Assembly (NCBI GenBank): GCA_002296055.1
Contig: DBHE01000096.1
Span: forward strand, 1-26,557
Direction: 5' to 3'
Source: Pseudomonadaceae bacterium UBA836
Lineage (GTDB): Bacteria; Pseudomonadota; Gammaproteobacteria; Pseudomonadales; Pseudomonadaceae
Length of the DNA: 26,557 nucleotides
Shown here: piece after piece, positions 4,204-22,559 of the stretch
Position numbering within the stretch: the stretch's first letter is position 1
Layout: the number at the start of each line of letters is the position of its first letter
Translations under genes and position numbers: made by a program
The notes under the pieces: generated by a model
Database searches by the model: none
Seen by the model: only the letters and a program-made list of their open reading frames with translations
What the model was told of the DNA's origin: nothing

Positions 4204-5250
4204 ATGACATTGACCGATCTGCTGGGCAGCACCTTGCCCTTGATTCAGGCACCCATGGCCGGTGTGCAAAATAGCGCGCTGGCGTTGGCGGTATGCCGCG
4301 CTGGCGGACTGGGTTCGCTGCCCTGCGCGATGCTCGGCGCCGAGGCGTTAGAGGCTGAGCTGCAGACGCTTCAGCGTGAGGCCGCCGGCCCCTGGAACCT
4401 GAACTTTTTTGCCCACCAGACACCGCCGGCGGACGCGCAGCGCGAGCAGCAGTGGCGTAGCGCGCTGGCGCCCTACTATGCCGAGCTGGGGCTGGATATC
4501 GAGGCGATCAAGCCGGGGGCGGGGCGTCGGCCGTTCGACGCCGACACGCTGGAGTTGATCAGCGCCTACCGCCCGCCCGTGGTGAGCTTTCACTTTGGCT
4601 TGCCGGGCGCGGCGATGATCGAGCGCATTAAGGGCTGGGGCGGTAAGGTGCTGTCCAGCGCCACGACCGTTGCCGAAGGGCGCTGGCTGCAGGCCCACGG
4701 CGCAGACGCGGTGATCGCTCAGGGGTTGGAAGCCGGTGGGCATCGGGGGCACTTTCTGTCGACCGATCTGAGCCTGCAGATGGGCACCTTTGCGCTGCTG
4801 CCGCAGCTGGTCAGAGCCCTGGATATCCCCGTCATTGCCGCTGGTGGCATCGCCGACGCCGATGGCGTGCGGGCCGCTATGCAACTTGGCGCTGCTGGCG
4901 TGCAAATCGGCACCGCCTACCTGCTTTGCGCCGAGGCGACCACCACGGCGCTGCACCGTGCTGCGCTGCAAAGCGAGGCGGCGCAGCACACGGCGTTGAC
5001 TAACCTGTTCTCCGGCGGCGCGGCGCGCGGCATCGTCAATCGGGTGATGCGTGAGCTGGGGCCGCTTAGCGCCTTGCCGCCACCCTTTCCGCTGGCCGGT
5101 ACGGCCATCACGCCCTTGCGTGGGGCGGCAGAGCAGCTTGGTAGCAGCGCCTTTTCTCCCCTGTGGGCCGGGCAGAACGTCAGTGGCTGCGAGGCGACTG
5201 GTGCCGAGCAGCTGACCCGCAAGCTGGCGTCCGCCTGCTCAGGCCGGTAG
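4204..5250 (+). CDS. Nitronate monooxygenase, class I (2-nitropropane dioxygenase family)
   Basis: FMN-dependent TIM-barrel enzyme that oxidises alkyl nitronates such as propionate-3-nitronate to carbonyl compounds and nitrite, a detoxification reaction. The 348-aa length fits the family. Visible motifs are the N-terminal PLIQAPMAGVQ, the catalytic histidine region GLEAGGHRGHF with His180, the FMN phosphate loop AAGGIADADGVRAAMQLGA, and GVQIGTAYL near it. The start has GGGAGA seven bases upstream. It follows the amidohydrolase by 85 bp on the same strand and overlaps the tail of the convergent REC-HDOD gene by 12 bases. Some family members are enoyl reductases (FabK), but the AGGHRG histidine favours a nitronate monooxygenase. 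Confidence 0.85.
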   Translation: MTLTDLLGSTLPLIQAPMAGVQNSALALAVCRAGGLGSLPCAMLGAEALEAELQTLQREAAGPWNLNFFAHQTPPADAQREQQWRSALAPYYAELGLDIEAIKPGAGRRPFDADTLELISAYRPPVVSFHFGLPGAAMIERIKGWGGKVLSSATTVAEGRWLQAHGADAVIAQGLEAGGHRGHFLSTDLSLQMGTFALLPQLVRALDIPVIAAGGIADADGVRAAMQLGAAGVQIGTAYLLCAEATTTALHRAALQSEAAQHTALTNLFSGGAARGIVNRVMRELGPLSALPPPFPLAGTAITPLRGAAEQLGSSAFSPLWAGQNVSGCEATGAEQLTRKLASACSGR

Positions 5251-6363
5251 ACCGATCAGGCGGCGCAGCTGGCGCAGTTGGTCCGGATCTGCGGGTGTAA
5301 ACCCGGTTTCCAGGGCGGCAATGCGCAGCAGGATGCGGTCTTTGCGCAGGCCGGTACGGGGCAGCTGGAATAGTGAGCCGGTGAGTTCGCGCAGCAAAAA
5401 GGGCAGCTGTTGCTGGGTTTTGATGCAGTTGCCAAAGGCTGCCGCGTGTTGATTGATCAGGGTATCCAGGCTGCTCTCATCAATCTGCTGACCGTAGTTG
5501 AGAAAGTGCTGAACCGCGCTGATCACCGCTAGCTCGCCCAGCCGGCTGCAGCTGATGGCCGCCCGCAGCGGGCCGACAGGAATGGCCTGCTCGGCGCTGT
5601 GGCGTCCGAGTGCGTCGCTCAGGGCTTGCTGCTGGCTGGCAAACTCGGTGACCCGCTGTTGCAGCAGCGGGTGCTCCAGTGCAATCCGTGCTTGCGCCAG
5701 GCGCGCTACCAGTTCACGGCAATCGGCCGGCCCCAGGCGCTCCCAGACGGCCTGCAGGCTGAGACAGGTCGCGCGTCCGCGCTCCAGCTGACGGTTGGCG
5801 CGGTTCAGGGCAATCAAGGTGAGCATCGGCTCGGCCTCAGCCAGGGCGTTGAAGCGCTCGAAGTTGAGCTCTTTGGCACTGCTGGCGGCCAACTGTTGCT
5901 GGGCGGGCGAACTCCAGGCCAGTCGCAGCGGCTGCTCCAGACGGGCACGCAGAAAGCTGGGCAGGTCGCCGAGGTTGGCGCTGGCACTGACGTTGGCCGG
6001 GTCGCATTGCAGCAGCTGCGCCAGACGGCCGCGCAGGGCGTCGACCTTAAAGGGCTTGGCAAAGAAATCGGTAATGCCGGCGGCGCGTGCGTCGAGCACC
6101 AGCTGGCGGCTGATATCGGTGGTTGTCAGCAGGCGCAGGCTGTTGGGAGCACGGCGCGCAGCGGTGCGCACTACCTCCAGGCCGTTGCCGTCGGGCAGGT
6201 TGAGATCAGCGATCAGTAGGTCAATGGTGTTGCCACGCAGATAGTTCTGCGCGGCCACCGCGCTGCTGAGGTGCTCAATCTGCAGGTTGGCGTCCAGGTC
6301 GGTGAGTATCAGGCGCAGCAGCTCGGCAATCCAGGGGTCATCCTCGACAATCAACGCGTTCAA
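5239..6363 (-). CDS. Response regulator with REC and HDOD domains
   Basis: 374-aa cytoplasmic response regulator, last gene of the signalling operon. The receiver occupies residues 1-120, with acidic pair Asp8/Asp9, phosphoacceptor Asp53 in LIADLNLP, a Thr in LLTTTD and Lys103 in FFAKPF, so it should be phosphorylatable. Residues about 165-350 resemble an HDOD domain (FNALAEAEPMLTLIALNRANR, then LQAVWERLG), a non-catalytic HD-GYP relative used as a protein-interaction output. Translation starts at TTG: the stop of the upstream GGDEF gene and this start share the bases TTGA, and GGAGA lies six bases before the TTG, so the two are coupled. It may act as a terminal acceptor of the phosphorelay; the output partner is unknown. 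Confidence 0.85.
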   Translation of the reverse strand: MNALIVEDDPWIAELLRLILTDLDANLQIEHLSSAVAAQNYLRGNTIDLLIADLNLPDGNGLEVVRTAARRAPNSLRLLTTTDISRQLVLDARAAGITDFFAKPFKVDALRGRLAQLLQCDPANVSASANLGDLPSFLRARLEQPLRLAWSSPAQQQLAASSAKELNFERFNALAEAEPMLTLIALNRANRQLERGRATCLSLQAVWERLGPADCRELVARLAQARIALEHPLLQQRVTEFASQQQALSDALGRHSAEQAIPVGPLRAAISCSRLGELAVISAVQHFLNYGQQIDESSLDTLINQHAAAFGNCIKTQQQLPFLLRELTGSLFQLPRTGLRKDRILLRIAALETGFTPADPDQLRQLRRLIGLPA

Positions 6364-7463
6364 CTAGCGTCTCCGGCATCTCCGGCATCTCCGGCATCTC
6401 CGGCATCGAGGCAAAGGCGATTGCGGCCGCTCTGTTTGGCGCGGTAGAGCGCGCGGTCGGCGCGCTCCAGCAGTTCCTCGTCGGCCCAGCTATCGGCCTC
6501 GCAGGCGCTGATGCCGGCGCTGAAGCTGCAATTGAACTGATGCCCGTCGGCAGAAAACTGCAGGGCATTAAAGGCTTCGCGGATGTTTTCCAGCAGCTGA
6601 TAGGCGTCTTCGCTGCTGCAGCCGGGCAGCACAGCGACAAATTCCTCGCCACCGTAGCGGCCCAGGCGGTCAATCTTGCGCAGACGCTGGCGCAGCATGT
6701 TGGAGAGTGCGCGGATGACGTTGTCGCCACAGGCGTGCCCGTAGTTGTCGTTAACGCCCTTGAAGTGGTCAATATCAATCATCGCAACGCTGACCGGCGC
6801 CTTGCAGCGTCGCGCCCGCTCGACCTCGACTTCAAGTTGTTCCTTGATATCGGCGTGCTTGAGCAGGCCGGTCAGGCTGTCGCGGGCCAGCGCGTCGCTG
6901 ACCATGCGGGCGCGCTGGGCGCGCGCGTAGACGGTGGTCAGCAGCGCGCTGTCGCTGATCGGTTTGGTGATGAAGTCGTCACCGGCCTTGAGCAGTGCGG
7001 ACATTTGCCGATCGGCGTTGGTTTCGGCCGAGAGATAGACAATCGGGACCCGCAGCCAGTCATCGTCCAGCCGAATCACCTGAGCCAGCTCGGGGCCGCT
7101 GTACTCGGGCATGTTGAGGTCCATCAGCACCACTTCGGGAATGAAGCTGTGCATTTTTTCCAGCAGGTTGTTGGGGTCGGCGACGCTGTCCACCAGCATG
7201 CCGGCGTTGCTCAGCACCAGCTGATAGCGGGCGGTCAGTTCGGCGTCGTCATCGACAATAAGCACGCGGAAGGGGCCGCCCTGCAGGTTGTTGAAACCAC
7301 GTTCCAGCCGGCGCTCCAGCAGGGGCAGGTCTACCGGCTTGGTGAAAAAGCCAATGGCACCGGCGCGTACTGCCTGCAGGCGGCTGGCAAAGGTGTCCTG
7401 CGAGCTGATGATCAGCAGCGGTGGCAACTGGCCGGGTGGCTGTTGAAACACGGGTTCTTGCAT
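6360..7463 (-). CDS. REC-GGDEF diguanylate cyclase portion, downstream of in-frame stop
   Basis: Largest open part after the TAG, 367 aa from the ATG at 7463. It holds the end of a first receiver (FFTKP), a complete second receiver (VDDD acidic triad, phosphoacceptor in VVLMDLNMP, Lys in FITKP) and a full GGDEF domain. The active-site loop is GGEEF and is preceded at the canonical five-residue distance by the RKID inhibitory site, so the cyclase itself looks competent to make c-di-GMP from two GTP and to be product-inhibited. The ATG at 7463 has no recognisable ribosome site and falls inside the first receiver, after its phosphoacceptor Asp. This is therefore better seen as the 3' part of an interrupted gene than as a designed start. 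The protein ends in four Asp-Ala-Gly units. Confidence 0.7.
   Translation of the reverse strand: MQEPVFQQPPGQLPPLLIISSQDTFASRLQAVRAGAIGFFTKPVDLPLLERRLERGFNNLQGGPFRVLIVDDDAELTARYQLVLSNAGMLVDSVADPNNLLEKMHSFIPEVVLMDLNMPEYSGPELAQVIRLDDDWLRVPIVYLSAETNADRQMSALLKAGDDFITKPISDSALLTTVYARAQRARMVSDALARDSLTGLLKHADIKEQLEVEVERARRCKAPVSVAMIDIDHFKGVNDNYGHACGDNVIRALSNMLRQRLRKIDRLGRYGGEEFVAVLPGCSSEDAYQLLENIREAFNALQFSADGHQFNCSFSAGISACEADSWADEELLERADRALYRAKQSGRNRLCLDAGDAGDAGDAGDAS
6371..6406. repeat. Four tandem copies of a 9-bp unit at a gene junction
   Basis: Four perfect contiguous copies of CTCCGGCAT on the plus strand. Read on the minus (coding) strand the unit is ATGCCGGAG and encodes the repeated Asp-Ala-Gly tail of the GGDEF protein. 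Each unit ends in the Shine-Dalgarno-like GGAG, and the copy nearest the next gene supplies the ribosome site for the TTG start at 6363. Being a multiple of three, copy-number change would keep the frame but alter the tail and the number of nearby ribosome-binding motifs. Confidence 0.9.
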
Positions 7464-7553
7464 CAGGCGGCTGCCGGGTGGGCTGTTGTCGACGATCAGT
7501 GCATCCAGCGGTGCGGCGGTACGCAGCTCGTCGGCGGTGCTGAACAGGCTGAC

Positions 7554-7556
7554 CTA
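7554..7556 (-). other. In-frame TAG stop codon within REC1
   Basis: The plus-strand bases are CTA, giving TAG as codon 153 in the frame that starts at 8012. The codon before is TAC (Tyr), the one after GTC (Val). No other stop occurs in this frame until 6360. The next in-frame ATG is 93 bases downstream, at 7463, and lacks a ribosome site. Confidence 0.95.
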
Positions 7557-8012
7557 GTAGCCAAAGCTGTCCAGTGTCTGCCCCATTTGGCTGCCCAGAG
7601 CGCGGTCCGCGATCAACAGGCCGATATGTCGGTTTTCGCTGTCCAGATTGCTGAGCGCGTCCAGCGGCTGCGGTGATGTACTCTCCGCGTCGCTGCGCTG
7701 CAGCAGGGTATGCAGTTGGCCGGTGGCGCTGGCCAGGCTGGCCAGCACGTCAGGCTTGGCGGCGCCGCTGTCCAGCTCGGCCTGGGCCTGCTCTTCCAGG
7801 GTGCGGCAACGGTCGCCCAGTGCCGCATAGCCAAAGGTACCGGCCGAGCCGGCCAGCTTGTGCAGGCGATCGCGCAGCTCGCGGAGTGTGTCCGGACCGT
7901 CGTTGAGGCGCTCGGACAACTGGGCCAGGGTGACAAGCTCCTCGTCCAGTCGTTGTCGGAAGCGAGCTTCCAGCGCGGCCAGCTGCGAGCCGAGCGGATT
8001 GGTTTCAGTCAT
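7554..8012 (-). CDS. Hpt-domain fragment upstream of the in-frame stop
   Basis: 152-aa product if translation stops at TAG 7554. Residues 1-110 are a histidine phosphotransfer domain with phospho-accepting His51 in HKLAGSAGTFGY, the classic Hpt signature. Residues 132-152 are only the first strand and helix of a receiver. The start has GGGAG seven bases upstream and overlaps the preceding receiver gene by 8 bases, so the two are co-translated. As a free Hpt it could still pass phosphate between the stand-alone receiver and other receivers such as REC-HDOD, but it would no longer be tethered to the diguanylate cyclase. Confidence 0.8.
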   Translation of the reverse strand: MTETNPLGSQLAALEARFRQRLDEELVTLAQLSERLNDGPDTLRELRDRLHKLAGSAGTFGYAALGDRCRTLEEQAQAELDSGAAKPDVLASLASATGQLHTLLQRSDAESTSPQPLDALSNLDSENRHIGLLIADRALGSQMGQTLDSFGY

Positions 8013-8391
8013 GCTGTTGCTCCCAGATCTGGCGAATTTGGTCGGGCAGGGTCATAGGGTCGAAGGGTTTTACGATGACCCCGGCGGCGCCGAGGGCGCG
8101 GTAGGCGTCAACCTCTTGAACCTGCGCCTTGGCGGTCATGAAAATAACGGGCACGCCGTCCATGCACGGCAGCTCGCGCAGCTTCTCCAGGGTTTGCGGG
8201 CCATCCATGCCAGGCATCATCACATCCAGTAGCACCAGCTGCGGAGCGAAGCTCTCGGCGCCAGCAACCCCTTCAGCGCCGGACGCACAACTGCGTACGT
8301 TGAAGCCACCAACGACTTCCAGCGCCACGCGGGCGACTTCCTGAATGGACGGGTCGTCTTCAATGTGCATGATGCGTTCTAGTCCGGTCAT
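8005..8391 (-). CDS. Stand-alone receiver (CheY-like response regulator)
   Basis: 128-aa protein that is only a receiver domain. All phosphorylation residues are present: Asp12/Asp13, phosphoacceptor Asp56 in LVLLDVMMPGMDG, Thr86 in FMTAK and Lys108 in VIVKPF. It lies between two kinases that have no receiver of their own and a gene encoding an Hpt, so it fits as the intermediate of a four-step relay, carrying phosphate from kinase histidine to Hpt His51. It follows the second kinase gene by 59 bases and overlaps the Hpt gene by 8 bases. The ribosome site is modest (AGG about seven bases upstream). A direct protein-binding role, as in chemotaxis CheY, is the alternative. Confidence 0.9.
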   Translation of the reverse strand: MTGLERIMHIEDDPSIQEVARVALEVVGGFNVRSCASGAEGVAGAESFAPQLVLLDVMMPGMDGPQTLEKLRELPCMDGVPVIFMTAKAQVQEVDAYRALGAAGVIVKPFDPMTLPDQIRQIWEQQHD

Positions 8392-8450: not shown

Positions 8451-10061
8451 CTACGCTGCCGTTTGGCATAGTGGCAGGCGGAACCAGAAGCAGGCGCCGG
8501 CGCCGCTCTGTGAGCGCACCCCTACCCGACCCTGCATGCGCTCGATCAGCTCCTTGCAGATTGCCAGTCCCAGACCGGTTCCGCCACGTTGGCGTACATT
8601 GCTGTTGTCGAGCTGGGTGAATTTGCGGAACAGCAGCGGCTGTTGATCCTCTGCAATACCTATGCCCTGATCGACGACCTGCACCTCCACCTCGTCACCT
8701 TCGACGAGAATGCGCACCTGAATCAGGTCGCCGGGATGTGAGAATTTGGCAGCATTGGACAGGTAGTTGCCCAGCACCTGCTGCAGGCGACGTTCATCGA
8801 CGTGCACCAGCGGATCAACCTGGCCTGACTCCAGTGCCCAGCTGACCTGATAACGCCCGGCATAGGGTTGGTTGATTTCCAGCGCCTGCTCCACGATAGG
8901 TCGCAGATGCTGGGTGGCAAGGCGCAGATCCAGCTGACCGGCCTCGAGCTTTTCCATATCCAGCAGGTCGTTCACCAGTTCATTCAGGCGCTGGCTGTTG
9001 TCGTGGGCGATGCTCAGCAGGCGGCTGCTGGTGTCTGCCGGCACGCCACCGGCGCTGTTGCGCAGCAGGCCGATAGCACCACTGATGGCCGTCAGGGGGG
9101 TGCGCAACTCGTGGCTGACGGTCGCGAGAAAGTGGCTTTTCAGGCTGCTGGCGCGGCGAATTTCGGTAATGTCATGCATCACCACGATGGCGGCGCCGGA
9201 CCCGCTGCGCTCGGGATACAACTGCCCGCCGCTGCACAGCACATGGCGCAGCGGCTGGCCGGCGGCGGCGATGCTGATCTCCAGGTTGTCCACCGGCTCG
9301 CCGCGCCATGCGCGCAGCAACGGGATGGCATCGCTGGCCAGCGGCGTGCTGCCGTCGGCCTGATAGAGGTCGTAATAGCGTCCCAACTCGCTGGGCGGCA
9401 GATGCATGACGTCGGTGCCATGCCATTGTTTGGCGGTGCGGTTGAAGAGGGTTAGCTGACCGCTGTCGTCACAGGCCACGACGCCGGCCTTGAGGGAGTC
9501 GAGCAGGCGGTGGTTGAGCACCTGTTGGTGCTCCAGCTCGGCGGTGCGTTGCTCGCTGTCGAGCAGGTTGACGCGCAGGCGCAGCTGAAACTCGGCCATG
9601 CGCGCCAGTCGGCGCAGGGTATCTTGCTGTGCGGGCGAGAGCTGGCGTGGCACCTGATCGATCACGCAGAGGGTGCCGATCAGCTCGCCCTCCGGGCTGG
9701 CAATGGGTACGCCAGCGTAAAAGCGGATGTTGGGGTCACCGGTTACCAGCGGGTTGTCGCGAAAGCGGGTGTCGCGGGTAGCGTCGGGGACTTCCAGCAG
9801 CTCACGGGCTTGAATGGCGTGTACGCAGAAGGCCATCTCGCGCGGGGTTTGGTCGGCGTCCAGGCCCACGCGGCTTTTGAACCACTGGCGCTGATCGTCG
9901 ACCAGCGACACCAGGGCGATGGGGGTTTCCAGCCAGCGCGAGGCCAGCTCGGTCAGATCGTCAAAGGCCTGCTCGCTGGGGGTGTCGAGAATCTGCAGGC
10001 GTGCCAACGCCTCCAGCCGGCGCGCTTCGCGATTTTCTGCTGTGTCTTGCTCTTGGTTCAC
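8451..10061 (-). CDS. Soluble GAF-PAS sensor histidine kinase
   Basis: 536-aa cytoplasmic histidine kinase with no membrane segment. A GAF domain spans about residues 30-180 (FDDLTELASRWLETPIALVS through FYAGVPIASPEGELIGTLCV), a PAS domain about 200-310, then HisKA with His317 in SHELRTPL, and a HATPase with N-box NYLSNAAKFSH, DQGIGI and GGTGLGLAI. There is no receiver or Hpt. I chose the GTG at 10061 because GGGAGG lies upstream of it; a longer frame from 10139 would overlap the preceding kinase gene and has no ribosome site. It begins 19 bases after the large kinase gene ends, and its catalytic core closely resembles that of the large kinase. Confidence 0.88.
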   Translation of the reverse strand: MNQEQDTAENREARRLEALARLQILDTPSEQAFDDLTELASRWLETPIALVSLVDDQRQWFKSRVGLDADQTPREMAFCVHAIQARELLEVPDATRDTRFRDNPLVTGDPNIRFYAGVPIASPEGELIGTLCVIDQVPRQLSPAQQDTLRRLARMAEFQLRLRVNLLDSEQRTAELEHQQVLNHRLLDSLKAGVVACDDSGQLTLFNRTAKQWHGTDVMHLPPSELGRYYDLYQADGSTPLASDAIPLLRAWRGEPVDNLEISIAAAGQPLRHVLCSGGQLYPERSGSGAAIVVMHDITEIRRASSLKSHFLATVSHELRTPLTAISGAIGLLRNSAGGVPADTSSRLLSIAHDNSQRLNELVNDLLDMEKLEAGQLDLRLATQHLRPIVEQALEINQPYAGRYQVSWALESGQVDPLVHVDERRLQQVLGNYLSNAAKFSHPGDLIQVRILVEGDEVEVQVVDQGIGIAEDQQPLLFRKFTQLDNSNVRQRGGTGLGLAICKELIERMQGRVGVRSQSGAGACFWFRLPLCQTAA

Positions 10062-10080
10062 GCTGCCCTCCCTTGCTTGC

Positions 10081-13000
10081 CTAGTCAACCAGCGGCAGCC
10101 GCAGCCAGAAGCATGAGCCCTGCTGCGGTATGGAATCAAACCCTACTTCGCCGTGCATGCGCTGGGCCAGCTCGCGGCTGATCGCCAGCCCCAGCCCGGA
10201 GCCGGCGCGTTGCCGGGTATTGGAGCTATCGACCTGGAAGAACTTGTCGAAGATGCGCGCGTGCTCGTGTTCGGGAATGCCGATGCCCTGGTCTTGCACG
10301 CTGATCCGCACCCACCCCTCGGCGACCTCGGCACTCAGGGTAACGCGACCGCCGGCGTGGGAAAACTTGGCGGCGTTGGACAGGTAGTTGCTGAGAATCT
10401 GGCCAAGGCGTTGGGCGTCGACGTTCACCGTTACCTCGTCGACCTGGCCCAGGCACTGCTGAACCTGGTACTGCGCGGCGTAGCTCTGGTTACGCTGCAG
10501 TGCCTGTTCCAGCAATGGCTGCAGAGGTTGTGGCGTCAGCTTCACGGCCAGTTTGCCAGCGGCCAGCTTGTCCATGTCCAGCAGGTCGTTGATCAGGCGC
10601 AGCAGCGTGTCGCTGTTTTGCACCGCGATGTCCAGCAGCGAGCGCATGCGCTCGGGTACCTCGCCCAGCGCGCCGCCGTGCATCAGCTTGAGCGAGCCGT
10701 TGATGGCGGTCAGCGGGGTGCGCAGCTCGTGGCTGACGGTGGAAACAAACTGGCTCTTCATCTGCTCTACGCGTGCCTGCTCGGTCACATCCCAGATAAA
10801 ACCGTCAAAGCTCTGCAGTTGGCCGTTGCTGTCAAACTCGCCACGGCCCTTTTCACGGACCTGCACCAGATGGCCATTGGCGTGGACCAGCCGGTAGGTG
10901 ATCTCGAAGCTGGGGTCATCCTCTGCCAGCTCAAGACACTGCAGGGTTATGGGCAGGTCTTCGGGCAGGATGATGCTGGCGTAGCTGCGCTGGTGGTTGT
11001 CGATAAAGTCGCTGGCCGGGTAGCCGCTGATCCGTTCGATGCCCTGGCTCATGTAGGACATGCGCCAGTCCTCGGAGGCGGGGCAGCGATAGACTGCGCC
11101 GGGCAGGTTGCTGACCATGCTGCGGTAGCGTGATTCGCTGTTCTGCAGGGCGCGTGTGGTGTGGATCAGCTCGGTGATATCGGTCGCCATGCCGAGAAAA
11201 CCGATCAGGTGATCGTGGTCATCGGCAATGCGGGTAATGGTCAGCTTGACCTGGCGACGGCTGCCATCTTTGCGTTGGTAGGTCCAGGCACTTACCCCGG
11301 GCTCGCCACGGCGCGGCTCGTGCAGAAAGACTTCCAAGCCGTCTACCGAGTAACCGAGCTGCTCACTGAGCTCGGCGCTGCGTTCTGCTATTTCGTCGGC
11401 AAGGTGGAAGTGCAGCGGCGAATGGCGGCCGACCACTTCATCGCTGCGGTAGCCGAGCAGGCGCTCTGCGCCGCTGTTGAACAGGCTGATCTGGCCTTGC
11501 GGGTCGGCAGCGATAATGGCGACTTCGGTCGACGCGTTGATGACCGCACTGAGATAGCTGCGTGCTTCGCGAACTTCTTCGTTGGCGCGCATTTCGGCGC
11601 TGACGTCGGTATGAATGCCGCTGAGGGTCAGCGCTTTGCCCTGCGGATCGCGGGCGGTCACCTGGCCCTGGCTTTGAATCCATATCCAGTGCCCCTCACG
11701 GTGCCGGGCGCGGGTCAGGTAGCGCAGGTAATCGGTATGACCGCGCAGGTGCGCGTGCAATTGTTCGAGGGCGTTGGCGACGTCATCGGGGTGCAGCAGG
11801 TCGGTCCAGCGGTCAATCGTCAGTGGGTTCAGGTCTTCGGGCTGATAGCCTAGCATCTGATACCAGCGCGGACTGGCCTCCAGCTGGCGGTTGCCCAGAT
11901 CCCACTCCCAGCTGCCAACGCCGGTGGCGTGGATAATCCGCGCCAGCCGTGCGCGCTCTTCGTCGAGCCGTTGCTGGATATGCTTGCGCACGGTGACATC
12001 GGCGATAAAGCCGTGCCAGATCAGGTCGCCGTTATCCAGGCGCTCGGGACTGGCGTAGCCGGCAACCCAGATCTCACCCAGGCGTGGGTGACGCACGCGG
12101 AATTCCGAGCGCCAATCGCTGAGCTGCTCGCTGGAGCGCTGAATCTCCTGCTCTACCTGTGGCCAGTCGTCCGGGTGAATCAGCTCAATGGCCGGCTGGG
12201 CATCCTGCGCCGCCTGCTCGGGCGTCAGGTTGTAAATATCGCCAATGCCTTCGCTGCTGTAGGGGAACCAGCTGCGGCCGCTGCTGCTGTCGATCTGATA
12301 CTGATAAACCATGCCCGGCAGGTGTTGGGTCAGCTTGTGGAAGCGCTGCAGCAGGGCCTCGCGCTGCTGTTCACCGGCGGCCTGCTCAAGCAGGCTGCTG
12401 CACCAGCGCCCACACAGGCGGACAAAGTCCATGTCCACTTCGTCAAAGGGTTGCGCGCGGGTGTTGGCGCTGGAGAAGTTAAGGGTGCCAAAGCGCTGGC
12501 CGTCGACGATCAGGACGATGCCGATGTAGCTCTCCAGGCCAAACGATTGATAACAGGGGTGCCCGCTGAAGCGCGAGTGCCCCATGCGGTCGATGGCCAG
12601 CGCGTCGTTTGCCTGGCAGGTCAGGGAGCAGTAGGTCTGGGCCAACTCGAACTGGGTGCCGGCCGGGGGAGCGTCGCTATTGCTGCTGGCGGCTTCGACC
12701 CGGTACTGATCCTGCTCGATGTGACTGATCAGCCCGAGGTCCAGCCGCAGGTAGTCACAGCCCAGATCCAGCAAACGTACCATCCGCTGCTGGTAACTCA
12801 GGCCCGGGTCTGCGGCGATCTTGTTGAGTTGTCGCAAGGCCTGGCGCTGACGCTCCAGACCGCGCTGCATGATCTCGTTTTCCCGACGTTGGCGCAGCGC
12901 GTCGAGCAATTGGCCAAGCGCGGTTTGCAGCGGCGCGAGAAAGGCGCGCAGGTCAGGGTTGAGCGGCTGCTCGCCGCCAGACAGCGCCAGCACACCGAAT

Positions 13001-14433
13001 TGGCGGCCGGCAAAAATCAGCGGTAGCACCAGCGCCCGTGGCATGCCCTGTGCCGCGTTGGCCAGGCGTTGCTGTGGATGGGACTCACGCAGCACCTGGG
13101 TGAGCGTTGGCTGCAACGCGGCCGGCACCGGGTCGCTGCTGCTGCTGGCCAGACTCTGCAGTTGCAGTTGGCCGTCGCTGTCTGGCAGCGCCTGCAGAAA
13201 GTCCGCGCGGCCGTAGCCGGTCAGCCCGAGAATCTGTTGCAGCAACTGTTGCAGGCTGGCCGCCATCTCGTTGCGTTGAATGTAAGCTGACTGCGCGTGG
13301 CTGATGATCTCCAGTAGGCGGCGGTCTCGCTCACGGCGCTGGCTTTCGTTACTGATGGCCTCGGCGTGCAGCGCCATCTGACGGCGGGTGACGTGGCGAC
13401 TGTAGACCAGCAGCAGGGTAAACAGGGTGATAGCGGCAAACCAGGCCAGCAGCCAGTTGCCGGCCAGGTGCAGCAAGTCCTGCCGGTGGGCGGCGTAGGC
13501 TTGGGTCATGTCGCGCCACAGCATCAGCGCGGCAGGGTTTTCATCTTCGGTGTCGCTCAATGTATAGGCGGCACGCGGTAACAGCGCAGCCAGCCAGACT
13601 TGTTCGCCGTGCTCAAACAAGTGCGGGTTGGCGATGCTGCGGGTGGCTTTGGCAGCCTGACTGAGCATCTCCAGATCAACGGGTCCGGGGCTGTCAGCCA
13701 GGAGCCAGCGGCCGGCATCCACCCTGGGCAGTGGGCTATTTTGCTGCTCGTCAGCCAGATAGAAAGGGCGTACCAGCAATGCCAGCCCCTGTTCGGTGGG
13801 GCTGCTGTGTTGGGCAAACGCGGGAAAGCCGACCTGCAGGGTGGCGATCACCCGGCTGTTGCTGGCGTCGCTGGCAAACACGGGTGCAACCGCGCTCTCG
13901 CTGGCGCCGCCAGGGTAGAGCGCCAGGCCGTCCACCCGTTCGGCATGCTCCTGACTGTATTGCAGCAACGGGCGCTTGCTGTCGGCACGGTCGGCCCAGC
14001 GCTCCGGCCGTTGCATGCGCAGTAGCGCGGTGCTGCCGGGCGCCAGGTGGATTTGCAGCTCTTTGGCGCCAGCCTGCTGCAGCAGCTGCCAAAAGCCGGA
14101 CAGGTCGCTGGCGATCTGTGCTCGCAGGCGCGCTACTTCGGGGTCATCCAGTCCATATTGGCCCACCAGGTAGGCAATGCGCCGCAGCAGGCGACGCAGA
14201 TCGGGGTCTTCGCTGAGGCCAAACACCGCAATGCTGGCCTGCTGACGCAACGCCAGCTCTTCCTGCTGCAGGCTGCGCAGTTCGCCCTCGATCGCCTGGT
14301 ACTGCTGGTTGCGCCACGTCTCGTCCCGATGTTGCCAGGCACTGGTACCCAGATAGCCAAAGCACAGGGTCACTAGCAGCATACCGAGCGCCAGGGCGAT
14401 GCGTCCGTTGCTTGCGTGGTCTGGTGTGGTCAT
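10081..14433 (-). CDS. Large membrane GAF/multi-PAS sensor histidine kinase
   Basis: 1450-aa kinase, first gene of the signalling operon. Transmembrane helix 1 is at about residues 12-29 and helix 2 at about 325-346, enclosing a roughly 295-residue periplasmic sensor that could be a Cache-type domain (not proven). In the cytoplasm come two GAF-like domains (about 388-520 and 548-688), four PAS domains (about 695-818, 832-951, 958-1090 and 1095-1222), HisKA with His1235 in SHELRTPL, and a HATPase with NYLSNAAKFSH, DQGIGIPE and GSGLGLAI. No receiver follows the kinase core, so phosphate must leave to a separate protein, most likely the stand-alone receiver. The ATG at 14433 has no strong ribosome site. 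The signal is unknown. Confidence 0.88.
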   Translation of the reverse strand: MTTPDHASNGRIALALGMLLVTLCFGYLGTSAWQHRDETWRNQQYQAIEGELRSLQQEELALRQQASIAVFGLSEDPDLRRLLRRIAYLVGQYGLDDPEVARLRAQIASDLSGFWQLLQQAGAKELQIHLAPGSTALLRMQRPERWADRADSKRPLLQYSQEHAERVDGLALYPGGASESAVAPVFASDASNSRVIATLQVGFPAFAQHSSPTEQGLALLVRPFYLADEQQNSPLPRVDAGRWLLADSPGPVDLEMLSQAAKATRSIANPHLFEHGEQVWLAALLPRAAYTLSDTEDENPAALMLWRDMTQAYAAHRQDLLHLAGNWLLAWFAAITLFTLLLVYSRHVTRRQMALHAEAISNESQRRERDRRLLEIISHAQSAYIQRNEMAASLQQLLQQILGLTGYGRADFLQALPDSDGQLQLQSLASSSSDPVPAALQPTLTQVLRESHPQQRLANAAQGMPRALVLPLIFAGRQFGVLALSGGEQPLNPDLRAFLAPLQTALGQLLDALRQRRENEIMQRGLERQRQALRQLNKIAADPGLSYQQRMVRLLDLGCDYLRLDLGLISHIEQDQYRVEAASSNSDAPPAGTQFELAQTYCSLTCQANDALAIDRMGHSRFSGHPCYQSFGLESYIGIVLIVDGQRFGTLNFSSANTRAQPFDEVDMDFVRLCGRWCSSLLEQAAGEQQREALLQRFHKLTQHLPGMVYQYQIDSSSGRSWFPYSSEGIGDIYNLTPEQAAQDAQPAIELIHPDDWPQVEQEIQRSSEQLSDWRSEFRVRHPRLGEIWVAGYASPERLDNGDLIWHGFIADVTVRKHIQQRLDEERARLARIIHATGVGSWEWDLGNRQLEASPRWYQMLGYQPEDLNPLTIDRWTDLLHPDDVANALEQLHAHLRGHTDYLRYLTRARHREGHWIWIQSQGQVTARDPQGKALTLSGIHTDVSAEMRANEEVREARSYLSAVINASTEVAIIAADPQGQISLFNSGAERLLGYRSDEVVGRHSPLHFHLADEIAERSAELSEQLGYSVDGLEVFLHEPRRGEPGVSAWTYQRKDGSRRQVKLTITRIADDHDHLIGFLGMATDITELIHTTRALQNSESRYRSMVSNLPGAVYRCPASEDWRMSYMSQGIERISGYPASDFIDNHQRSYASIILPEDLPITLQCLELAEDDPSFEITYRLVHANGHLVQVREKGRGEFDSNGQLQSFDGFIWDVTEQARVEQMKSQFVSTVSHELRTPLTAINGSLKLMHGGALGEVPERMRSLLDIAVQNSDTLLRLINDLLDMDKLAAGKLAVKLTPQPLQPLLEQALQRNQSYAAQYQVQQCLGQVDEVTVNVDAQRLGQILSNYLSNAAKFSHAGGRVTLSAEVAEGWVRISVQDQGIGIPEHEHARIFDKFFQVDSSNTRQRAGSGLGLAISRELAQRMHGEVGFDSIPQQGSCFWLRLPLVD

Positions 14434-15385: not shown

Positions 15386-15437
15386 CTGATGATGGTCAAT
15401 CAGCCCTGGCGCCTGCCCATCAGGTTTAATCTGATGG
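15386..15437. promoter_or_regulatory. Repeated CTGAT/ATCAG elements in the SDR-gltS spacer
   Basis: CTGAT at 15386-15390 pairs with ATCAG at 15399-15403, and CCATCAG at 15417-15423 pairs perfectly with CTGATGG at 15431-15437 across a 7-base spacer. Two nested dyads built of the same half-site in a divergent promoter region suggest binding of a dimeric regulator to both. The spacer of the second dyad contains TTTAAT, and TATATC follows at 15453, but no good -35 could be fixed. Confidence 0.35.
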
Positions 15438-15498
15438 TCTGCCCTGTGGGCGTATATCCTTGTGCCCTGCTACCCACGCCATCACTGCGAGACCTGCC

Positions 15499-16710
15499 AT
15501 GGAAGAGCCTGCCCTGCTGATCAACACGCCAACCACCCTGGCACTGACGGTGATTGCGCTATGGCTGGGCTACTGGATCAATCAACGGGTTGGTTTGCTC
15601 AGCCGCTACAACATTCCGGCTGCGGTCAGCGGTGGCTTGCCGGTCAGTGCGCTGGTGGCGGTGTTGCAGCTGCTTTTTGATCGCGAGATTTTGTTCGACC
15701 TGGAGCTGCGCAATCTGCTGCTGATTGCCTTCTTCAGCACCATCGGGCTGTCGTCGCGCTTGCGACAATTGCTGGCCGGTGGGCGGGCGTTGGCGATTAT
15801 GCTGGGGTTGGCGGTGATCTTTCTGCTGTGCCAGAACATCGTTGGCACGCTGCTGGCGCTGGGGCTGGGCGAAAGCCCACTGTACGGCTTGATTGGCGGC
15901 AGCATCTCGCTGGCCGGCGGCCACGGCACCGCGCTCACCTGGGGTGAGCTGTTCGAGGAGCATTTCGGGCTGGCCGATGCCAGCACCCTCGGCCTGGCGA
16001 TGGCGACTGCCGGGCTGATCAGCGGCGGCCTGTTGGGCGGCCCGGTGTCGGCTTGGCTGATTCGCCGTCACCAGCTCGCCAGTAGCGAGGTGGAGAGCGA
16101 ATTGCCGCAGCTCGAAAGCCACGGCAAGACCACCTACCTGATCGACCTGGACCACCTGCTCACCGCGGTGCTGCTGATCGCGCTGTGTTTTGCCCTTGGC
16201 GCCAGTGTCTATGACTGGCTGTCAGGCCTGGGGCTTCGGCTGCCGGCGTTCCTGACCTCCATGTTCCTCGGCATACTGCTGGCCAACGGACTGGATCTGG
16301 CCGGGGTAGAGGTAGACGAGCGGCCTATTCAGCTGGTGGGCGACCTCAGTCTGCAGCTGTTTCTTGGCATGAGCCTGATCAGCTTGCCGCTGTTGTCACT
16401 GCAGGGTGCGTTCGGGGTGATCGGCGTTATGTTGCTGGTGCAGGCGGTACTGATCACGCTGTTCACCGTGTTTCTGGTGTTTCCGCTGCTGGGTCGCAAT
16501 TACGACGCTGCTTGCATCAGCGCGGGGTTTATCGGCATGGGGCTGGGCGCCACGCCGGTCGGCATCGCGAATATGGATGCGTTGACCAGCCGCTATGGCC
16601 CCAGCCCCAAGGCCTATCTGGTGATTCCGCTGCTTGGCGCGTTCTTTATCGATATTGCCAACGCTACCCTGGTGCAGACGTTGCTTGAGTTCAGGTTGTT
16701 CAGCCCTTAA
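15499..16710 (+). CDS. gltS: Sodium/glutamate symporter, GltS family
   Basis: 403-aa inner-membrane protein matching the GltS family in length and pattern: about ten hydrophobic segments, the early RYNIPAAVSGGL motif, the re-entrant-loop GGHGTALTWGELFEE in the first half, and the inverted-repeat counterpart GLGATPVGIANMDAL in the second. It imports glutamate with sodium. I chose the ATG at 15499, which gives the usual N-terminus; a TTG at 15460 adds 13 residues without support. The ribosome site is weak. A G+C hairpin CGCCC-TGC-GGGCG follows the stop at about 16723-16735 without a T-run. Glutamate specificity is a family inference. Confidence 0.88.
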   Translation: MEEPALLINTPTTLALTVIALWLGYWINQRVGLLSRYNIPAAVSGGLPVSALVAVLQLLFDREILFDLELRNLLLIAFFSTIGLSSRLRQLLAGGRALAIMLGLAVIFLLCQNIVGTLLALGLGESPLYGLIGGSISLAGGHGTALTWGELFEEHFGLADASTLGLAMATAGLISGGLLGGPVSAWLIRRHQLASSEVESELPQLESHGKTTYLIDLDHLLTAVLLIALCFALGASVYDWLSGLGLRLPAFLTSMFLGILLANGLDLAGVEVDERPIQLVGDLSLQLFLGMSLISLPLLSLQGAFGVIGVMLLVQAVLITLFTVFLVFPLLGRNYDAACISAGFIGMGLGATPVGIANMDALTSRYGPSPKAYLVIPLLGAFFIDIANATLVQTLLEFRLFSP

Positions 16711-16768
16711 GAGCCTGGCCCTCGCCCTGCGGGCGCTGTTGATTCATCTGCGGCTCTGTTTCGGTTGC

Positions 16769-22340: not shown

Positions 22341-22437
22341 GTGTTCAAGAAATATTGGCGACAGTGATGGGCGCTTGTCTGATGAGCATAAATGTGCGGT
22401 TGAGCAGCGCTGGAGACAGCGCGGATAGTGCCGCTCA

Positions 22438-22517
22438 CCGTCATTCCCGCGAAGGCGGGAATCCATGTATTTCGGTGCTTACATGGCCGTGGATCCCCGC
22501 CTTCGCGGGGATGACGG
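22438..22517. repeat. REP-type inverted pair (REPIN-like)
   Basis: Two 28-bp arms, 22438-22465 and 22490-22517, in inverted orientation with two mismatches between them. Each arm is itself a hairpin, for example TTCCCGC-GAAG-GCGGGAA, and an inner 7-bp pair (CCATGTA, TACATGG) adds to the fold. The core matches the ATTCCC-N8-GGGAAT pattern seen in dispersed repeats such as dRS3 of Neisseria and in REP elements of many Proteobacteria. It explains the spurious reading frames here that begin with MDSRLRGNDG. It lies about 40 bp upstream of the sigma-54 promoter. Confidence 0.8.
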
Positions 22518-22559
22518 GGGTGTGTAGGTAGAAAGTGCATTCAGGGCGTTTCACGCATG

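What the first reader, a model, noticed from the sequence alone, without database searches (positions are those of the whole stretch)
7554..7556. A single TAG severs an Hpt phosphotransfer domain from its REC-REC-GGDEF partner
The frame from 8012 to 6360 encodes Hpt-REC-REC-GGDEF with one internal stop, TAG at codon 153, in the second strand of REC1 (Gly-Tyr-stop-Val). All downstream motifs (Asp175, Lys225, Asp298, I-site RKID, GGEEF) are intact and no ribosome site precedes the next ATG at 7463. Either a recent CAG-to-TAG mutation has silenced the c-di-GMP branch of an otherwise intact relay, or the stop is suppressed, or it is a sequence error. If real, the strain would keep Hpt and REC-HDOD signalling but lose cyclase output, a switch with likely effects on biofilm or motility.
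Basis: partly seen in the sequence, partly recalled or inferred. Interest (0 to 1): 0.75.

Follow-up and report, generated by a model that had tools for sequence, protein, structure and literature searches.

The report
Signalling enzyme gene cut by stop
One stop codon interrupts a conserved bacterial signalling-enzyme gene in this assembly, while a nearly identical allele and the relatives examined carry it whole, so it is most likely an ordinary, very recent gene loss or else a sequencing error.

Summary
In detail: minus-strand frame 8012-6360 encodes Hpt-REC-REC-GGDEF with one internal TAG (codon 153, start of REC1 strand 2) and no evident restart site. The gene is one open frame in the other 25 same-genus genomes in which it was found (26 of 37 with this one), and no other of 98 family copies shows a stop in its matched body. 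A near-identical intact protein differs only at residue 85, at codon 153 and in a tail repeat. So the stop is private and very recent; the DNA behind it still shows purifying selection (omega 0.105). Recoding is unlikely: no CUA tRNA among 29 found, RF1 present, TAG ends other genes here. Among 124 candidate genes compared with the nearest genome, this was the only convincingly broken one, so the draft is not generally error-ridden; without reads, error stays possible. Most likely a fresh loss-of-function allele that leaves a 152-residue Hpt stub and no cyclase. That downstream signalling is kept is unproven, since that gene's start overlaps the cyclase's stop. Ordinary; low interest.

The parts
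7554..7556 (-). In-frame TAG, codon 153, first residue of strand 2 of receiver domain 1
   Evidence: no stop here in the relatives matched
7557..8012 (-). Open 152-codon piece: complete Hpt domain (His51 intact), linker, first strand and helix of REC1
   Evidence: (Hpt E=3.5e-10); its ATG overlaps the stop of the upstream REC gene
6360..7553 (-). Piece behind the stop: rest of REC1, REC2 (canonical), GGDEF with RxxD I-site and GGEEF, terminal TGA
   Evidence: Response_reg 3.1e-24, GGDEF 1.3e-42; dN/dS 0.105 versus G008 over codons 154-535
7461..7463 (-). Next in-frame ATG after the stop (codon 184); no Shine-Dalgarno-like 4-mer before it
6370..6407 (-). 9-bp tandem repeat, 4.2 copies, encoding the Gly-Asp-Ala tail; the near-identical allele P0002 has two units fewer
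5239..6363 (-). Downstream REC protein with a helical C-terminal domain (possibly a diverged HDOD); its TTG start overlaps the cyclase's TGA stop, with GGAG 7 bases before it
8005..8391 (-). Upstream single-domain receiver; its stop overlaps the ATG of the cyclase gene
8451..10139 (-). GAF-HisKA-HATPase histidine kinase (weak PAS match)
   Evidence: no stop versus G008
10081..14433 (-). Large GAF/PAS histidine kinase, 1450 aa

Best explanation
A strain-private, very recent nonsense allele of a conserved Hpt-REC-REC-GGDEF diguanylate cyclase (PleD-like, with an added N-terminal phosphotransfer domain) in a Halopseudomonas. Shown: the stop is in the sequence; close relatives and a near-identical allele are intact; no strong restart signal or suppressor tRNA was found. 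Inferred: translation ends after the Hpt domain, leaving a 152-residue product with a dangling piece of REC1 and no receiver or cyclase output; ribosomes no longer reach the overlapping start of the downstream REC gene, so its expression may also fall unless its own GGAG site suffices. The intact protein most likely works by phosphoryl flow from the two linked kinases, by way of the separate REC and the Hpt domain, to its receivers; the canonical REC2 then helps GGDEF dimers form (inference from domain order and from PleD and WspR).
For: In the genus 26 of 37 genomes hold the gene, G000 included, and the other 25 have it in one open frame. In the family 97 of 298 genomes hold 98 copies; apart from G000, four rows were flagged for a stop, and in those tblastn aligns without a stop through residues 533-535. 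P0002 (544 aa, longest contig 2.15 Mb) differs at residue 85, at 153 and in tail-repeat number. No second record of the 152-aa truncated protein was found (4 hits, 37-66% identity). dN/dS behind the stop 0.105, REC2 0.034. Of 124 candidate genes of this assembly compared with G008, no other was convincingly broken. No Shine-Dalgarno-like 4-mer before 13 in-frame starts. RF1 present; no CUA tRNA among 29; TAG is a used stop.
Against: No reads are available; a single wrong base in the assembly would look the same. The genome is a fragmented draft (275 contigs, 83.9% complete; runs of N in 12 of 35 sequences taken). The TAG was seen in no second record. That P0002 is the same species is inferred from its near-identity. 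Loss of function is not shown by any experiment.
Confidence: 0.6

Rival explanations
1. Sequencing, assembly or strain-mixture error: the organism carries the intact gene and the TAG is a wrong or minority base.
For: Draft of 275 contigs at 83.9% completeness with runs of N in 12 of 35 sequences taken; a near-identical intact allele exists; the TAG was seen in no other record.
Against: No other convincing disruption in 124 candidate genes (42,243 codons) compared with G008, so a high general error rate is unlikely; the window has no N; P0002 also differs at residue 85 and in repeat number, as a different strain would.
Confidence: 0.29
2. Split but working system: the stop leaves a free Hpt protein, and a second start behind it gives a REC2-GGDEF (WspR/DgcR-like) cyclase.
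For: Hpt is whole; REC2-GGDEF alone has the architecture of DgcR and WspR; a GTG at 7265 lies at the start of REC2.
Against: No Shine-Dalgarno-like 4-mer before 13 in-frame starts, only a GGAA before codon 287 inside REC2; no relative matched encodes two proteins.
Confidence: 0.08
3. TAG is read through by a suppressor tRNA or a changed code.
For: The frame behind the stop is unspoiled.
Against: No CUA tRNA among 29 found; RF1 present; TAG ends 6 of 21 window ORFs listed; stop not shared by relatives. The genome is incomplete, so a missed tRNA is possible.
Confidence: 0.03

Closest known systems
PleD of Caulobacter (REC-REC-GGDEF diguanylate cyclase)
   Same: Two receivers followed by GGDEF with I-site; the ten best Foldseek matches of the intact protein's model are PleD chains (TM-scores 0.26-0.39, as the domain arrangement differs or is uncertain), and PleD is among the best PDB sequence matches. 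PleD and WspR are activated by phosphorylation (PMC8457831, passages).
   Different: Adds an N-terminal Hpt domain; here REC2 is the invariant receiver (Asp254, Asp255, Asp298 in 24 of 24 rows, window and P0002 included) while REC1 varies (Asp175 22 of 24, Lys225 17 of 24). That PleD is phosphorylated on REC1 is recalled. Score 193 against the NCBIfam PleD cut-off of 474.
DgcR (REC-GGDEF; NCBIfam DiguCycDgcRLepto)
   Same: REC2-GGDEF half matches over residues 242-533 and 250-533.
   Different: The match has no Hpt or REC1; 193 bits against a cut-off of 500.
Natural truncations and pseudogenes of c-di-GMP turnover genes (review PMC10333796, passages only)
   Same: The review describes strain-level polymorphisms and truncations of such genes, e.g. 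ycgG in E. coli, and pseudogene formation in other lineages.
   Different: Another gene and genus; no phenotype known here.
P0123, 85-aa Hpt protein recorded from Halopseudomonas pachastrellae
   Same: A shortened record of the same gene in a related species (66% identity over 53% of the 152-aa query).
   Different: Breaks off inside the Hpt domain with an unrelated tail, so a separate event or error.

Membership tests
Recent loss-of-function (nonsense) allele | In-frame stop in a gene that is intact in relatives | tested here: met
Recent loss-of-function (nonsense) allele | Intact allele within the species | tested here: met
   P0002, (same species inferred from near-identity of the protein)
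Recent loss-of-function (nonsense) allele | Little further decay, constraint until recently | tested here: met
   dN/dS 0.105 behind the stop
Recent loss-of-function (nonsense) allele | Stop confirmed by reads; no full-length or restarted product | not testable with these tools
   no reads or expression data
PleD family (NCBIfam NF007135) | REC-REC-GGDEF domain order | tested here: met
   intact allele P0002:
PleD family (NCBIfam NF007135) | Score above curated equivalog cut-off (474) | tested here: not met
   193 bits
Programmed stop read-through or recoding | Stop conserved in relatives | tested here: not met
Programmed stop read-through or recoding | Decoding tRNA for UAG | tested here: inconclusive
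   none among 29 tRNAs in an 84%-complete genome

The most novel reading that the evidence does not exclude
The stop turns a fused phosphorelay cyclase into a free Hpt protein that still takes phosphoryl groups from the linked kinases and passes them to the neighbouring single REC and REC-HDOD-like proteins, rerouting the relay rather than just silencing it.
Probability: 0.07. Interest if true: 0.4.

Novelty: new member of a known kind. Interest (0 to 1): 0.13.

Why it matters
If real, it is one more instance of strain-level loss of a c-di-GMP cyclase while the rest of its relay stays intact, with a near-identical intact allele for comparison. It teaches no new mechanism. If it is an error, it is only a caution about reading pseudogenes from one draft assembly.

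Tried and rejected
Recoding or suppression: judged unlikely (RF1 present, no CUA tRNA among 29 found, TAG used as a normal terminator). Two-gene organisation in relatives: not found. Restart behind the stop: no strong signal. Old pseudogene: rejected. Error-ridden assembly: of 124 candidate genes 12 were flagged. Three flags were runs of N in the assembly; five stops lay in front of the evident start of the gene (judged from the printed translations); three lay in frames that overlap longer, better conserved frames, so shadow frames; one was the cyclase gene. In the reverse direction, as a control, 118 candidate genes gave 4 flags in G008: one is a shadow of the large kinase gene; the other three stops lie within the first 44 residues of the G000 frame and were not resolved further. 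HDOD in the downstream protein: no Pfam match even at E 10; the 50 Foldseek rows shown are mostly receiver matches; 2 of 70 hits carry PF08668, so HDOD is only possible. The one scan of genome contigs kept 80 loci at 28-47% identity (best segment), too distant, and they were not used further.

Literature: Halopseudomonas with c-di-GMP (1 paper), Hpt/REC/GGDEF/PleD/Pseudomonas (20 papers, 15 listed), diguanylate cyclase with premature stop codon and natural isolates (1), diguanylate cyclase with nonsense mutation, Pseudomonas and histidine phosphotransfer (1), Halopseudomonas with nonsense mutation (0): listings with abstract starts only; none of these listings names this gene. Passages only were seen of PMC10333796, PMC9600634 and PMC8457831; PMC9600634 was not used.

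Full report
Observation. The minus-strand frame from ATG 8012 to TGA 6360 has one internal stop, TAG at 7556-7554, codon 153. The 152-aa piece before it holds an Hpt domain; the 397-aa piece after it holds a receiver and a GGDEF domain. In the AlphaFold2 model of the near-identical intact protein P0002 (mean pLDDT 77, pTM 0.48, so the domains are usable but not their arrangement) residue 153 opens the second strand of REC1, and REC1 has a complete alternating fold.

Relatives. The window is the whole contig C102 of a draft genome (275 contigs, 3.56 Mb, 83.9% complete). The genus is Halopseudomonas, judged from the names of protein relatives. In the genus, 26 of 37 genomes hold the gene at E 1e-80 or better, G000 included. 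Of the other 25, 24 have one frame of 546-593 codons without a flagged stop; the 25th (G029) was flagged for one TGA, where the match ran into the tail, but shows none over residues 2-543 (frame of 593). In 11 of 37 genomes no match reached the threshold. In the family, 97 of 298 genomes have 98 copies at E 1e-100 or better (up to four candidates scored per genome; a few matches are partial). Five rows carry a stop flag. G000 is one; in the other four (G162, G171, G212, G236) tblastn runs without a stop through residues 533-535, so the flagged stop lies in the variable tail or at the gene's end. Among the copies matched, G000 alone is broken in its body. A protein search listed P0002, 544 aa, longest contig 2.15 Mb: it differs from the window at residue 85, at the stop and, at the tail, by two Gly-Asp-Ala units. 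An intact allele of what must be the same species exists (species inferred). A search with the 152-aa piece found no second record of the truncated protein (4 hits, 37-66% identity); since that database is clustered at 90% identity, a truncated record hidden within P0002's cluster of 8 members cannot be excluded.

Age and constraint. G008, the nearest genome, is colinear with the window at 91-93% identity except for 15410-16766 and about 200 bases at 22354-22559. Against G008, dN/dS is 0.269 for codons 1-152 and 0.105 for codons 154-535, with REC2 at 0.034 and GGDEF at 0.095. The part behind the stop was kept by selection over the divergence from G008, and P0002 dates the stop to within the species.

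Is the assembly to be trusted? I compared 34 stretches of G000 plus the window (621,557 bases) with 1.24 Mb of G008; about 143 kb aligned, 25 kb of it the window. Of 124 candidate genes (42,243 codons) 12 were flagged: three at runs of N, five in front of the gene's evident start, three in shadow frames that overlap longer and better conserved frames, and the cyclase. The reverse control gave 4 flags among 118 candidate genes, one a shadow frame and three within the first 44 residues. So there is no sign of a high substitution or indel error rate, but one wrong base cannot be excluded without reads.

Recoding or restart. None of 27 tRNAs called by ARAGORN, nor the two cut tRNAs at contig ends (anticodons GTC and GCC, read by eye), has anticodon CUA (21 of the 29 tRNA loci were given to ARAGORN, the other eight genes lie within the same stretches). 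RF1 is present. TAG ends 6 of the 21 window ORFs that I listed. None of 13 start codons in frame within codons 153-330 has AGGA, GGAG, GAGG or AAGG in front of it; a GGAA precedes codon 287.

Neighbourhood and consequence. Order on the minus strand: 1450-aa GAF/PAS kinase, 562-aa GAF kinase, 128-aa receiver, the cyclase, a 374-aa REC protein. The cyclase's ATG overlaps the stop of the receiver gene, and its own stop overlaps the TTG start of the REC gene, with GGAG 7 bases before that start. By my reading of the sequences printed, 10 of the 22 relatives shown there (of 25 loci) have a receiver gene starting at the cyclase's stop. That protein has a helical C-terminal domain; HDOD is annotated in 2 of 70 hits. 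The kinase was found in 13 of 37 and the REC protein in 15 of 37 genus genomes (one of them partial), the cyclase in 26 of 37; the thresholds differ (1e-100, 1e-20, 1e-80), so the comparison is rough. The genome has many other GGDEF matches (75 matches to REC or GGDEF parts, itself included), so the effect of losing one is unknown.

Known kinds. The intact protein resembles PleD with an added Hpt domain, but scores far below the PleD and DgcR equivalog cut-offs, so I do not file it as either. In 24 rows of the genus alignment (22 relatives, the window and P0002) REC2's Asp254, Asp255 and Asp298 never vary, while REC1's residues do. Loss and truncation of c-di-GMP genes between strains is described in print (PMC10333796, passages). 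The finding is an ordinary instance of that, or an error.

Noticed in passing
window 6370-6407: A 9-bp tandem repeat (4.2 copies) at the end of the cyclase gene, right before the downstream start, differs in copy number from the near-identical allele P0002 (two units fewer).
   Followed up: partly
window 15410-16766: The segment with a sodium/glutamate symporter gene (15460-16710) is missing from the otherwise colinear region of G008.
   Followed up: no
P0123: A Halopseudomonas pachastrellae record of the same gene is only 85 aa with an unrelated tail, perhaps an independent break or an error.
   Followed up: partly
G000:C170:1383-1799: Another response-regulator-like match of this genome was flagged with one TGA inside.
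   Followed up: no
G000 stretches L151-L164, L194-L213: 19 runs of N, several of about 360-400 bases, in 12 of 35 sequences: a scaffolded draft, or withheld stretches.
   Followed up: partly
genus survey: The cyclase gene was found in more genomes (26 of 37) than the adjacent kinase (13 of 37) or the downstream REC gene (15 of 37), at different thresholds.
   Followed up: no
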